Made by a program: the position numbers and the translations under genes. The notes beneath the pieces are model-generated. The model did no database searches. It saw nothing but the letters and a program-made list of their open reading frames with translations, and was not told the origin of the DNA. Shown here piece by piece: positions 15,512 to 26,437 of a stretch of DNA of 44,185 bases (positions are counted from its first letter, which is position 1; the number at the start of each line of letters is the position of its first letter). Origin of the DNA: a virus; the IMG/VR virus record IMGVR_UViG_3300025120_000124, positions 1 to 44,185 of that record. The stretch is one strand, 5' to 3'.

Positions 15512-16059
15512 TGGCTGTACGCAAGACAGCAAAGGGCATGGCGCTAAAGCGCTGGTTCAAGGAGAAGTGGACGACCCCCAGAGGCAAGAAGGGGTACAGC
15601 GGCAGCGATCGCACCTTCCGCCCTACTGTTCGCGTATCAAAAGACACACCGTCTACATGGAGTGAGCTGTCTCCTTCTGAAAAGGCTAGAGCTGCAAAGG
15701 AAAAGAAGCAGAAGGGCAGGGTGTCTCGCTACAAAAAGAAAAAGAAGGCTATGGAAGGTATGAAAGTCATGAAGAAGGGTGGTAGAACCCAGACGATGCC
15801 CAAGATGAAGATGGGGGTTCACAAGAGCAGAAAGGGTGGACTCACAGCAGCTGGTGTGGCTGCATACAGAAGAGCCAACCCAGGGAGCAAGCTTAAGACA
15901 GCCGTGACCACCAAGCCATCAAAGCTCAAGGCTGGCAGTAAGGCGGCCAAAAGACGCAAATCTTTCTGCGCTCGCATGAGTGGCATGAAGGGGCCAATGA
16001 AAAAGCCAAACGGCAAACCAACACGCAAGGCTCTGGCACTTAGGAAGTGGAACTGCTAG
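15511..16059 (+). CDS. Lys/Arg-rich phage protein, DUF6321-like C-terminus
   Basis: 182 residues, extremely basic. The N-terminus (LKRWFKEKW, then KGYSGSDRTFRP) resembles a small phage domain of the DUF5872 type. The C-terminal 75 residues (GGLTAAGVAAYRRANPG, RRKSFCARMSGMKG, RKALALRKWNC) match the widespread phage module I recall as DUF6321. A MKKGGRTQ segment repeats the GG-basic motif seen in other late proteins. It ends the rightward block and faces the leftward operon. A nucleic-acid-binding virion role is plausible from charge only. Confidence 0.75.
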   Translation: MAVRKTAKGMALKRWFKEKWTTPRGKKGYSGSDRTFRPTVRVSKDTPSTWSELSPSEKARAAKEKKQKGRVSRYKKKKKAMEGMKVMKKGGRTQTMPKMKMGVHKSRKGGLTAAGVAAYRRANPGSKLKTAVTTKPSKLKAGSKAAKRRKSFCARMSGMKGPMKKPNGKPTRKALALRKWNC

Positions 16060-16061
16060 GT

Positions 16062-16137
16062 CGTCTGGGTGGGGCTTGAACCCACATGTAACCAATTACC
16101 CTTTCTACAAGGTATAAGCTTGAGGGGATACCAGACG
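16062..16137 (-). tRNA. tRNA-like element without a D arm (76 bases)
   Basis: Read on the minus strand there is a perfect 7-bp acceptor-type stem (16131-16137 with 16062-16068, CGTCTGG/CCAGACG), a TA at positions 8-9, and a perfect 5-bp T arm with loop TTCAAGC at 16069-16085. Between them a 6-bp hairpin TACCTT/AGGGTA with loop GTAGAA stands where the anticodon arm belongs, with a six-base loop instead of seven. I find no D arm. A CCA end is not encoded (ACCT follows). It may be a degenerate tRNA, a tRNA mimic or an RNA 3'-end element. No amino acid is assigned. Confidence 0.45.
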
Positions 16138-24947: not shown

Positions 24948-25128
24948 TGTGGTTGATTAGTGTGAGTTGAATTTCGGATTCGTGATTGTTGTGTAGCGGG
25001 TCGAGGTACACTGCATCGACATAGAAGTCGTAGCAGTCCTCGTATGCTGTCGTGTCATGCACCATGATGACAACGGGGTCGTCGTCTTTGCAGTCAGACA
25101 GGCTGTCAATTAGTTCTTTTTTAGTCAT
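24931..25128 (-). CDS. Small acidic protein, unknown (65 residues)
   Basis: 65 residues; MTKKELIDSLSDCKDDDPVV start, mainly beta after that, very acidic. The pattern 'short helix, then DDxPVVI' occurs in many small proteins of unknown role in mobile elements. It overlaps the preceding gene by eight bases. Confidence 0.55.
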   Translation of the reverse strand: MTKKELIDSLSDCKDDDPVVIMVHDTTAYEDCYDFYVDAVYLDPLHNNHESEIQLTLINHNDDSN

Positions 25129-25699
25129 TGTCTTTGGGTTTGGGGATACGGAAAGCGTGCATCACATAGTCGTCGATGTCGATGAAGGCATGACTGCGGT
25201 AGTACACAGAGGATATGAAGTCCGTCAGTTGTTCGAGTCCGTGAACCGATTGGTCGTTGTCCATGACATCGGATGAGACACGAGCCACCAAGGACATACA
25301 CAGGGGTTGGTAGTCCCATGCAGGGCAGGTATCCTGTTGGTCCCATGTGAGCCACATGTGCTCGGTAGATGATGCATTCTTGTAGCGTTCGCAGTCAATC
25401 TCGATGACTCGGAACACCTCGACAGTGCAGTCGTCGAAATTGTCTGCCACCCAATCGTCGTGGTCCATGTCTGATGGGACACAAGCCTTGTAGTCCTCGT
25501 AGTCACGGGTCAGGGTGATGTCAAGCGAGTCAACGTCAGGTTGCTCGATGCTTACACACATCTCATCGCCTTGGTAGGTCTCGATGATTTGCTTGAGGTG
25601 TTTCTTTGCGAGCTTCTTGTCGGAGAAGAACTCGCAAGTGGTGTCGGAGTAGCCTTCGAAGAGGCCAGCGACAGCGTAAATAACTGCGTATTGTTTCAT
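25121..25699 (-). CDS. Unknown acidic protein, first gene of the third leftward unit
   Basis: 192 residues, acidic, with several Cys and Trp and no membrane segment. The N-terminus (MKQYAVIYAVAGLFEGYSD) is beta-like. It is the first gene downstream of a Bacteroidota-type promoter at 25730-25761, so it is probably expressed early and strongly. No family recognised; an anti-host or take-over role would be a guess from position only. Confidence 0.6.
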   Translation of the reverse strand: MKQYAVIYAVAGLFEGYSDTTCEFFSDKKLAKKHLKQIIETYQGDEMCVSIEQPDVDSLDITLTRDYEDYKACVPSDMDHDDWVADNFDDCTVEVFRVIEIDCERYKNASSTEHMWLTWDQQDTCPAWDYQPLCMSLVARVSSDVMDNDQSVHGLEQLTDFISSVYYRSHAFIDIDDYVMHAFRIPKPKDND

Positions 25700-25710
25700 A
25701 GTGTATTGAA

Positions 25711-25733
25711 TTGATGTTTGATTCGATTACAAA
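25711..25733 (-). repeat. Leader repeat shared by leftward promoters (copy 1)
   Basis: These 23 bases (minus strand TTTGTAATCGAATCAAACATCAA) match 22 of 23 at 27797-27819. A shorter version (ATCAAACATCAAA) occurs in the leader at 28458-28469. The repeat spans the end of the -7 element and the start of the leader. Confidence 0.75.
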
Positions 25734-25761
25734 TTTAAGTGATGATTTATGAGATTCCAAA
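25730..25761 (-). promoter_or_regulatory. Bacteroidota-type promoter for the 25699-16213 operon
   Basis: On the minus strand TTTG (25758-25761), a 20-base spacer and TAAATTTG (25730-25737) match the Bacteroidota consensus TTTG-N19-21-TAnnTTTG exactly. It lies about 30 bases upstream of the ATG at 25699. Confidence 0.75.
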
Positions 25762-25788
25762 TGATTTAACAATTTTAACATTTGATAG

Positions 25789-25900
25789 AAGGGAGGTTGG
25801 GATTCGAACACAACTGCCATCGAGAACCCGTTAGGGCACCCCTGCCCTATGAGAGTAAACCAGCTCTCAAACTCGATGTACGCACCGACTGCGCTCCCTT
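25789..25900 (-). tRNA. tRNA-like cloverleaf with an insertion in the anticodon arm (112 bases)
   Basis: Minus strand: perfect 7-bp acceptor-type stem AAGGGAG/CTCCCTT (25894-25900 with 25789-25795); D-like arm CGCA-GTCGG-TGCG (25881-25893) with the canonical GG; a 7-bp stem CATCGAG/CTCGATG (25872-25878 with 25818-25824) where the anticodon stem belongs; linker GCA; T arm with consensus loop TTCGAAT and one mismatch (25796-25814). The 47 bases inside the anticodon stem fold into two hairpins, GAGAG/CTCTC and AGGGC/GCCCT. Positions 8-9 are missing and CCA is not encoded. No anticodon can be read; it could be an intron-bearing, degenerate or mimic tRNA. Confidence 0.5.
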
Positions 25901-25901
25901 G

Positions 25902-25973
25902 AAAAAAGTGGGGGGAAGGTGTGACGTTTCACACGCTCATCCGATCGAATTGCATCCCGAAAGGCGTCCCCCC
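25902..25973 (-). terminator. Structured 3' end with U-run after the second leftward operon
   Basis: Minus strand: a 7-bp closing stem GGGGGGA/TCCCCCC (25967-25973 with 25910-25916) encloses about 50 bases, including a perfect hairpin GTGTGA-AACG-TCACAC (25919-25934). TTTTTT follows at 25902-25907. This could end the operon whose last gene stops at 25989, but the interior is larger than a usual terminator and might be a structured RNA domain. Confidence 0.55.
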
Positions 25974-25988
25974 GTGGTCAAACATCAA

Positions 25989-26204
25989 TCAACCAATGAT
26001 GCCGTTGTGAAGAGCTTTGTCGGTGACTTCACCCGATCGAGTGACCCAGCCGTCTTCAATCAACGCAGTCGCGGTTCGACCATAGTGTCCTTGCAGTGAC
26101 CACACTGACCCATCGGAGATGAGAGCAGAGAATAGTTGTAGTGTACCAAAGGTGTCAAGTTCCCCGCACTCGTAGTCGAGGATTTGTGATAGTGTATTGT
26201 TCAT
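25989..26204 (-). CDS. Small acidic protein (71 residues), unknown
   Basis: Start chosen at the ATG at 26204 (MNNTLSQILDYECGELD) because it overlaps the upstream stop by four bases, the rule in this operon. Likely a small winged-helix-sized domain (ALISDGSVWSLQG, then TALIEDGWVTRSGEVTDKA), reminiscent of wHTH turn-and-wing order, but the similarity is weak. Last gene of the second unit. Confidence 0.6.
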   Translation of the reverse strand: MNNTLSQILDYECGELDTFGTLQLFSALISDGSVWSLQGHYGRTATALIEDGWVTRSGEVTDKALHNGIIG

Positions 26205-26437
26205 TGTTCTTTTGTTTGTGGTTCCACAATCTTGACCGTCCACCCATCAGGGCATAGGTCCATGGTCGCTCGGTCGAGAGCGTGGTCAAGGCTCCAAGCC
26301 TTAAACGTCATCTCCCTCCAATCGTCGCGGTCACGTCCACGATAGTACGTCATCGTGTAGTCGTCAGTCGGAACCGACTTCGGTACTTCTCCGTTCTCGA
26401 ACCAAGTTGCCTTGGGGTAGCGTTCCCATATATTCAT
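26201..26437 (-). CDS. Small protein (78 residues), unknown
   Basis: Start at the ATG at 26437 (MNIWERYPKATWFENGE), overlapping the upstream stop by four bases. Rich in Trp, Asp and Arg (YYRGRDRDDWREM). No family recognised. Both ends are joined to neighbours by ATGA overlaps. Confidence 0.6.
   Translation of the reverse strand: MNIWERYPKATWFENGEVPKSVPTDDYTMTYYRGRDRDDWREMTFKAWSLDHALDRATMDLCPDGWTVKIVEPQTKEQ

What the first reader, a model, noticed from the sequence alone, without database searches (positions are those of the whole stretch)
25789..25900. tRNA-like cloverleaf with a two-hairpin insertion in the anticodon arm
Acceptor stem, D-like arm with GG, T arm with consensus loop and a 7-bp anticodon-type stem are present on the minus strand, but the anticodon loop is replaced by 47 bases that fold into two hairpins. 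Group I introns are much longer, so this is not a usual phage tRNA intron. It may be a tRNA mimic, a target decoy for anticodon nucleases, or an RNA 3'-end processing signal.
Basis: partly seen in the sequence, partly recalled or inferred. Interest (0 to 1): 0.75.

Follow-up and report, generated by a model that had tools for sequence, protein, structure and literature searches.

The report
Phage tRNA-like RNA without a decoding arm
Viruses that probably infect Flavobacteria carry a conserved small RNA that keeps the handle and elbow of a transfer RNA but has swapped or lost the part that reads the genetic code, so it looks built to engage the cell's tRNA-handling enzymes rather than to make protein.

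Summary
Window 25788-25900 (minus strand) is one member of a conserved RNA family, here called TLS-1, found in about 52 IMG/VR phage contigs, with no cultured phage or convincing bacterial copy found. The acceptor stem, D arm (GG) and T arm (TTCGAAT) are nearly invariant: 95% scaffold identity against 62% at fourfold sites of the neighbouring gene. The 'anticodon arm' is hypervariable: UACG/UUCG/GAUC-capped mini-hairpins, the window's 47-nt two-hairpin insert, about 80 nt, or no arm at all. Twelve of 21 pairs show compensatory double changes (31 cells against 6.0 in shuffles, 0/500). A covariance model trained without the window finds it at 80.7 bits (E 5e-17). It is not a decoding tRNA: Rfam's tRNA model never hits it and armless forms have no anticodon, which also argues against an intron or an anticodon-nuclease decoy. 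Copies sit on the coding strand, usually just after a stop codon; two have their own Bacteroidetes-type promoter. Some loci place it in mosaic arrays of further unannotated structured RNAs. Best mechanism, inferred only: a mascRNA-like processing element cut by host RNase P and RNase Z, releasing a stable non-decoding tRNA-like RNA. A trans-acting sponge for tRNA enzymes is the main rival.

The parts
25894..25900 (-). Acceptor stem 5' strand AAGGGAG
   Evidence: Pairs with 25789-25795; compensated variants AAGGGGG/CCCCCTT, AAGAGAG/CTCTCTT, AAAGACG/CGTCTTT in relatives
25881..25893 (-). D arm CGC-AGTCGGT-GCG with the conserved GG
   Evidence: Near-invariant in relatives; variants AGATGGT (L106/107/109), AGTTCGGT (L105), insertions in L004 and L104
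25818..25878 (-). Hypervariable arm in the anticodon position: 7-bp stem CATCGAG/CTCGATG around a 47-nt insert
   Evidence: Stem covaries (AU to GC, UA to CG) at 4 of 5 counted pairs; the arm ranges from a 4-nt capped hairpin to about 80 nt, or is absent, in relatives
25850..25869 (-). Insert hairpin 1, TGAGAG-CTGGTTTA-CTCTCA
   Evidence: Sequence and MFE; found only in the window's own record among loci held
25832..25849 (-). Insert hairpin 2, TAGGGCA-GGGG-TGCCCTA
   Evidence: Sequence and MFE; no exact match in viral contigs
25796..25814 (-). T arm GTTGTG-TTCGAAT-CCCAAC with a conserved U.C mismatch
   Evidence: Stem switches to GAGGTG/CCCCTC or GGGGTG/CCCCCC in relatives with the mismatch kept
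25789..25795 (-). Acceptor stem 3' strand CTCCCTT
   Evidence: As for 25894-25900
25788..25788 (-). Discriminator-like base C (no encoded CCA)
   Evidence: C in most copies, A in L121/L125
25909..25996 (-). Adjacent upstream module A: TTGGTTgATTGatGTTTGACCA then GGGGGG...GTGTGA-AACG-TCACAC...CCCCCC
   Evidence: Precedes TLS-1 in most but not all relatives (absent in L038, L039, L102, L103, L108, L110, L121, L125), so a neighbour rather than a required part
25121..25699 (-). Downstream gene, 192 aa, unknown function; TLS-1 lies just upstream of it in most relatives
   Evidence: no Pfam, PHROG or PADLOC match
25989..26243 (-). Upstream gene, 84 aa, DUF7417
   Evidence: PF24192, E 5e-22

Best explanation
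This is a phage-encoded, non-decoding tRNA-like RNA element (TLS-1). Its conserved part is the tRNA top half and elbow: a 7-bp acceptor stem stacked on a 6-bp T stem with a T loop, plus a short D arm whose GG can dock into the T loop. The anticodon position holds only a replaceable stem cap. Most likely it works like mascRNA/menRNA: host RNase P recognises the elbow and cuts 5' of A25900, and RNase Z (possibly followed by CCA addition) cuts 3' of C25788. This punctuates the early polycistronic transcript after the upstream gene and releases a stable small RNA of about 113 nt. Shown: structure, covariation, constraint, dispensability of the arm, genomic position, lack of decoding capacity. Inferred: cleavage by RNase P and RNase Z, stability of the product, and any activity of the released RNA.
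For: Compensatory evolution of all four helices and an independent model hit. The retained features (acceptor/T stack, T loop, GG in the D loop) are those that PMC11693755 names as needed for RNase P and RNase Z recognition of mascRNA/menRNA, and the features lost (anticodon loop, junction linkers, full D stem) are also lost there. The arm is dispensable: tetraloop caps and separate armless lineages. Copies lie on the coding strand, usually 5-95 nt after a stop codon and often 15-50 nt before the next start, with a mostly conserved pyrimidine leader (YYTTTTTC) and trailer CTA. No terminator lies in the window at the element. In L128/129/132/133 it sits in a tight array after another tRNA-like RNA with a 7-nt spacer, like a tRNA cluster. 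Scaffold identity 95% against 62% at fourfold sites of the adjacent gene.
Against: No transcript or cleavage data. The conserved U.C mismatch and near-fixed acceptor sequence exceed what generic RNase P or RNase Z recognition should require, hinting at a specific partner, although spread by recombination could also explain the identity. L103 and L108 have their own promoter and L108, L121 and L125 are followed by a terminator, which suggests an RNA product rather than only a punctuation mark. There is one strong hit per contig, so it is not a general punctuation device. The window copy alone does not fold best into the cloverleaf.
Confidence: 0.5

Rival explanations
1. A trans-acting sponge or inhibitor: the released RNA is abundant and titrates or blocks a host enzyme that reads the tRNA elbow or acceptor (RNase P, RNase Z, CCA-adding enzyme, a T-loop modifying enzyme, or a defence nuclease or toxin that attacks the top half of tRNA).
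For: Stand-alone gene layout with Bacteroidetes-type promoter in L103 and L108 and terminator in L108; near-invariant scaffold with a conserved U.C mismatch not needed for folding; shuffled as a cassette between phages, as accessory genes are.
Against: No co-located defence or counter-defence gene among the ten neighbouring proteins scanned; no expression data; many copies have no recognisable promoter of their own.
Confidence: 0.27
2. A decoy for anticodon nucleases.
For: Cloverleaf with an altered anticodon arm on the coding strand of a phage.
Against: No anticodon loop in any copy examined; arms capped by UACG, UUCG, UCCG or GAUC; armless copies.
Confidence: 0.03
3. A tRNA gene interrupted by an intron, or a decayed tRNA pseudogene.
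For: tRNA-like D and T loops; the window and some relatives carry a bona fide tRNA-Arg elsewhere.
Against: The tRNA model does not hit even the 63-nt minimal form; the arm stem covaries instead of decaying; the scaffold is under strong constraint.
Confidence: 0.02
4. A cis-acting 5' regulatory or stabilising leader of the downstream 192-aa gene.
For: In most relatives the same gene follows within a few hundred nt.
Against: TLS-1 also occurs before unrelated genes (L038, L039, L050, L102, L110, L121) and before a terminator (L108); L024 has the gene with its divergent TLS 2 kb away.
Confidence: 0.1
5. A recombination or cassette-exchange joint kept because its conserved ends guide homologous recombination.
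For: Flanking modules switch at the element's 3' end, and CCTCCCTTCTAT recurs at another module boundary in L002.
Against: DNA homology would not require compensatory changes in stems; constraint is at RNA level.
Confidence: 0.05

Closest known systems
mascRNA and menRNA (human MALAT1 and MEN-beta 3' tRNA-like RNAs; PMC11693755)
   Same: Acceptor and T arm kept, reduced D arm with two guanines, no single-stranded junction linkers, anticodon arm replaced by a longer stem with a compact loop, not expected to be charged; lies downstream of a transcript body
   Different: Phage DNA of probable Flavobacteria viruses; arm hypervariable or absent; conserved U.C mismatch in a 6-bp T stem; RNase P/RNase Z processing not demonstrated; no homology claimed
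Plant-virus 3' tRNA-like structures (TYMV, BMV, TMV; from general knowledge, review PMC5723415)
   Same: Viral RNA mimicking tRNA
   Different: Those end an RNA genome with a 3' CCA and are charged or adenylated; this one is internal in a DNA phage transcript, with no encoded CCA
T4 stable RNAs C and D in the phage tRNA cluster (from memory)
   Same: Small stable phage RNAs of unknown function made from tRNA-type transcripts
   Different: Not compared here by sequence; no homology claimed
GOLLD and ROOL phage RNAs (PMC12286853)
   Same: Structured phage non-coding RNAs, often near tRNA genes, function unknown
   Different: Hundreds of nucleotides, multimeric cages; no Rfam match to TLS-1 or the neighbouring modules scanned
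Theta ribozymes (PMC10879173)
   Same: Phage RNA elements tied to tRNA processing, hosts mostly Bacteroidota
   Different: Self-cleaving HDV-like fold at tRNA 3' trailers; TLS-1 is a cloverleaf
Bacterial Y RNA (YrlA) with tRNA-like module (from general knowledge)
   Same: Non-decoding RNA with tRNA-like D and T features
   Different: YrlA replaces the acceptor with a long Ro-binding stem; TLS-1 keeps the acceptor and replaces the anticodon arm

Membership tests
tRNA (RF00005) | Scores above the family's gathering cut-off | tested here: not met
   no tRNA hit to TLS-1, even at E up to 10 for the window and for the minimal L011 form
tRNA (RF00005) | 7-nt anticodon loop on a 5-bp stem | tested here: not met
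   Arms are 4-nt capped hairpins, long inserts or absent
tRNA (RF00005) | 7-bp acceptor, GG D loop, TTCRA T loop | tested here: met
tRNA (RF00005) | Linker residues 8-9 between acceptor and D stem | tested here: not met
   D stem follows the acceptor directly in the alignment
mascRNA/menRNA-like tRNA mimic | Cloverleaf with reduced D arm, no junction linkers, elongated anticodon-position stem with compact loop | tested here: met
   features per PMC11693755. The compact loop holds for the short-armed copies, not for the window's long insert
mascRNA/menRNA-like tRNA mimic | Cut by RNase P and RNase Z, CCA added | not testable with these tools
   Needs biochemistry or RNA sequencing
mascRNA/menRNA-like tRNA mimic | Common descent with MALAT1/MEN-beta elements | not tested
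   No homology claimed; likely analogous
Viral 3' TLS (TYMV/BMV type) | Terminal position with 3' CCA | tested here: not met
   Internal, followed by CTATC
Group I intron-bearing tRNA | Catalytic intron in an otherwise functional tRNA | tested here: not met
   47-nt insert, no intron family hit; relatives have no insert and no anticodon
Rho-independent terminator | GC hairpin followed by a T run | tested here: not met
   No terminator-like site in 25500-26300

The most novel reading that the evidence does not exclude
Phages of Flavobacteria make dedicated small RNAs that present a bare tRNA elbow and acceptor, with the decoding arm removed, as specific baits or inhibitors of host tRNA-handling or tRNA-attacking enzymes. 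TLS-1 would be one of a shuffled set of such structured RNAs carried in arrays.
Probability: 0.25. Interest if true: 0.85.

Novelty: new variant of a known kind. Interest (0 to 1): 0.62.

Why it matters
It adds an apparently undescribed RNA family (no Rfam match, no cultured-phage hit) in which evolution repeatedly discarded the anticodon arm while preserving the tRNA elbow. That makes it a natural experiment on what RNase P, RNase Z or other tRNA-reading proteins minimally need, and it points to a shuffled array of unannotated structured RNAs in phages that annotation pipelines miss or miscall as tRNAs.

Tried and rejected
Intron-bearing tRNA, pseudogene, terminator and anticodon-nuclease decoy: rejected for the reasons under rivals. 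Rfam (7 searches): nothing for TLS-1; weak sub-threshold tRNA-Sec hits (about 21 bits) belong to a neighbouring module, not TLS-1. blastn against cultured phages with 700 nt and with the 64-nt core: no match. An exact 18-mer in 85k bacterial genomes gave 12 hits that score at most 22 bits with the family model and are treated as chance. Model searches of four related named phage genomes gave at best 19.9 bits, not counted as members. The insert's second hairpin pattern gave no viral hit. A search of bacterial relatives by taxonomy failed for want of a genome handle. Paper searches found no description of this element in the open-access library.

Full report
What was claimed and what is there. 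Reading the strand gives AAGGGAG | CGC-AGTCGGT-GCG | TA | CATCGAG [47 nt] CTCGATG | GCA | GTTGTG-TTCGAAT-CCCAAC | CTCCCTT | C. Every part is present. The 47 nt hold TGAGAG-CTGGTTTA-CTCTCA and TAGGGCA-GGGG-TGCCCTA. ARAGORN and the Rfam tRNA model do not report it. Folding energy alone is modest (z -2.2), and the cloverleaf (-38.8) is not the computed optimum of the window copy (-43.0), although it is the optimum for most relatives. Energy would not settle the question; comparison does.

Relatives. The window is an IMG/VR virus record. Its terminase, primase/helicase and ribonucleotide reductase are nearest to phages of Flavobacterium, Cellulophaga and Maribacter and to unassigned spring-water phages, so the host is probably a member of the Flavobacteriia. 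Searching with the downstream 192-aa protein brought in 24 related contigs, most with the element just upstream. Pattern searches on the 5' half, the T arm, the D arm and an alternative T arm raised the total to about 52 contigs including the window: 33, 9, 2, 5, plus L004, L024 and the window. No cultured phage in the collection matched (model search of four named relatives, at most 19.9 bits). Twelve bacterial contigs with the bare 18-mer score at most 22 bits with the family model and are taken as chance.

Structure is real. In 22 distinct relatives, not including the window, 12 of 21 pairs have both-sided compensatory changes, 31 cells against a shuffled mean of 6.0, none of 500 shuffles reaching it; sliding the partners by 1-3 columns gives 2 such pairs at most. 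All four helices contribute, including the acceptor (AAGGGAG, AAGGGGG, AAGAGAG, AAAGACG, each with its complement) and the T stem (GTTGTG/CCCAAC, GAGGCG/CCCCTC, GGGGTG/CCCCCC in A2; GAGGTG/CCCCTC in L018 and L021). The D-stem changes rest on the divergent L024 alone. A covariance model from these 22 hits the window at 80.7 bits, E = 5e-17. Caution: the first set was collected partly with an 18-mer that covers most of the acceptor 5' strand and the D arm, so their apparent invariance there is inflated; the variants came from searches that did not use it. Cells count sequences, not independent events.

Constraint and the variable arm. Over 15 loci the 46-nt scaffold is 95% identical on average, while fourfold-degenerate sites of the adjacent gene are 62% identical. 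The arm in the anticodon position behaves oppositely: CATC-TACG-GATG, CACTC-GATC-GAGTG, CACC-TTCG-GGTG and CACC-TCCG-GGTG in the smallest, 8-30 nt loops in many, 47 nt with two hairpins in the window, about 80 nt in L029 and L033. L018 and L021 have no arm at all. L128, L129, L132 and L133 are likewise armless, with a different acceptor, AGGGCG/CGCCCT, scoring 29 bits. In L004 and L104 the D loop carries an insertion instead. A U.C mismatch next to the closing pair of the T stem is kept in all 22 rows of A2 (C.C in the GAGGCG copy L020), including rows whose neighbouring pairs have switched; L012 is an exception with a U-A pair.

What it is not. With no anticodon loop, and sometimes no arm, it cannot decode; it is not an intron-bearing tRNA, and an anticodon-nuclease decoy is very unlikely. 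It is not a terminator. Indels of all lengths between relatives rule out a coding explanation.

Genomic setting. It lies on the coding strand between co-directional genes, usually soon after a stop codon, preceded in most copies by a pyrimidine run ending in TTTC or ATC and followed by CTA. In L103 and L108, which share an upstream gene, a Bacteroidetes-type promoter (TTTG-20-TATGTTTG and TTG-20-TATGTTTG; consensus from general knowledge) stands 4-19 nt before it. The L108 copy is followed by a detected terminator, GAGGGCTGCCTTCGGGTGGCCCTC-TTTGTTT; L103 has a GGGGG...CCCCC-TTTCTT hairpin by eye that the scan did not list; L121 and L125 are followed by GGGACC-rich hairpins with eight T. In many relatives it is one block of a mosaic of structured blocks whose order changes from phage to phage. 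In L128/129/132/133 the order is module E, a second tRNA-like RNA, a 7-nt spacer, then armless TLS-1.

How it probably works. What survives in almost every copy is the acceptor/T stack with a T loop and a D-loop GG, the elbow. PMC11693755 reports that mascRNA and menRNA keep this, have a reduced D arm, lack the junction linkers, carry a longer anticodon-position stem with a compact loop, are recognised at the elbow by RNase P and RNase Z, and that mascRNA is not aminoacylated. TLS-1 matches that anatomy closely. I therefore favour processing by the host tRNA-maturation enzymes: the upstream message gets a new 3' end, the downstream message a new 5' end, and a compact tRNA-like RNA is released. 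Cleavage and the fate of the product are inferred. The stand-alone copies and the unexplained mismatch mean that a trans-acting role, such as titrating a tRNA enzyme or an attacker of tRNA, remains a serious rival (27%).

Novelty. tRNA-like RNAs are a known kind, and phages are known to carry structured RNAs near tRNAs (GOLLD, ROOL, theta ribozymes; PMC12286853, PMC10879173). A phage family of elbow-only tRNA mimics with a disposable anticodon arm was not found in Rfam or in the open-access papers searched, so I call it a new variant of a known kind, with moderate confidence because most subscription papers and preprints could not be searched.

Noticed in passing
L002:1740-1874, L011:4400-4540, L018:4770-4900, L038:3440-3580, L093, L094, L098, L128-L132: Module E, about 130-175 nt, ACCTTGTCRGGTGWGGTGGG...GACTGACGGCTCGGAAAGACGAGC, with a covarying pseudoknot (GTAGCC/GGCTAT, CAACC/GGTTG, ATATCC/GGATAT; 14 double-change cells, 0/500 shuffles). 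It follows a tRNA-Arg in several phages; the 3' motif also occurs exactly in three more contigs (L096, L097, L099). No Rfam match.
   Followed up: partly
L002:2155-2270, L011:4542-4630, L038:3578-3663: A second tRNA-like element (AGGCAGA...TTCGAAT...TCTGCCT or GAGCGGG...CCCGCTC) with a long D-arm-like hairpin; L002 and L011 copies score weakly (about 21 bits) against tRNA-Sec.
   Followed up: partly
L022, L010, L012, L030, L057 (GGCAG...GGTGGTTCGACTCCACC...CTCTGCTA); L014 variant; L004 GGTGTTCC...AGCACC: Further candidate tRNA-like elements with T arms but unusual bodies, placed downstream of TLS-1.
   Followed up: no
window 16018-16114 (-): Called tRNA-Leu by ARAGORN, but relatives (L043, L046, L057, L128) show a conserved non-canonical body TATCYCCTCAAGCTTATACCTTGTAGAAAGRGTAA with a covarying acceptor; probably another non-decoding tRNA-like RNA.
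   Followed up: partly
window 25909-25996 (-): Module A: conserved hairpin xxxTGA-AACG-TCAxxx inside a GGGGG/CCCCC stem, often followed by a pyrimidine run; stems differ between phages while the loop stays.
   Followed up: partly
L029, L033 (TLS-1 arm) and L030:1315: The same hairpin CACTTGCAGACGTGCAAG occurs in the TLS-1 arm of two phages and in a different neighbouring module of a third, as if a small hairpin moves between RNAs.
   Followed up: no
L004:4699 and 4728; L030:1221 and 1236: Short direct repeats (GTAGCAAATGACC; GTGTACAATGTCC) inside TLS-1 insertions.
   Followed up: no
L002:2130-2155: CCTCCCTTCTAT, identical to the TLS-1 3' end, recurs before the second tRNA-like element: a possible recombination joint.
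   Followed up: no
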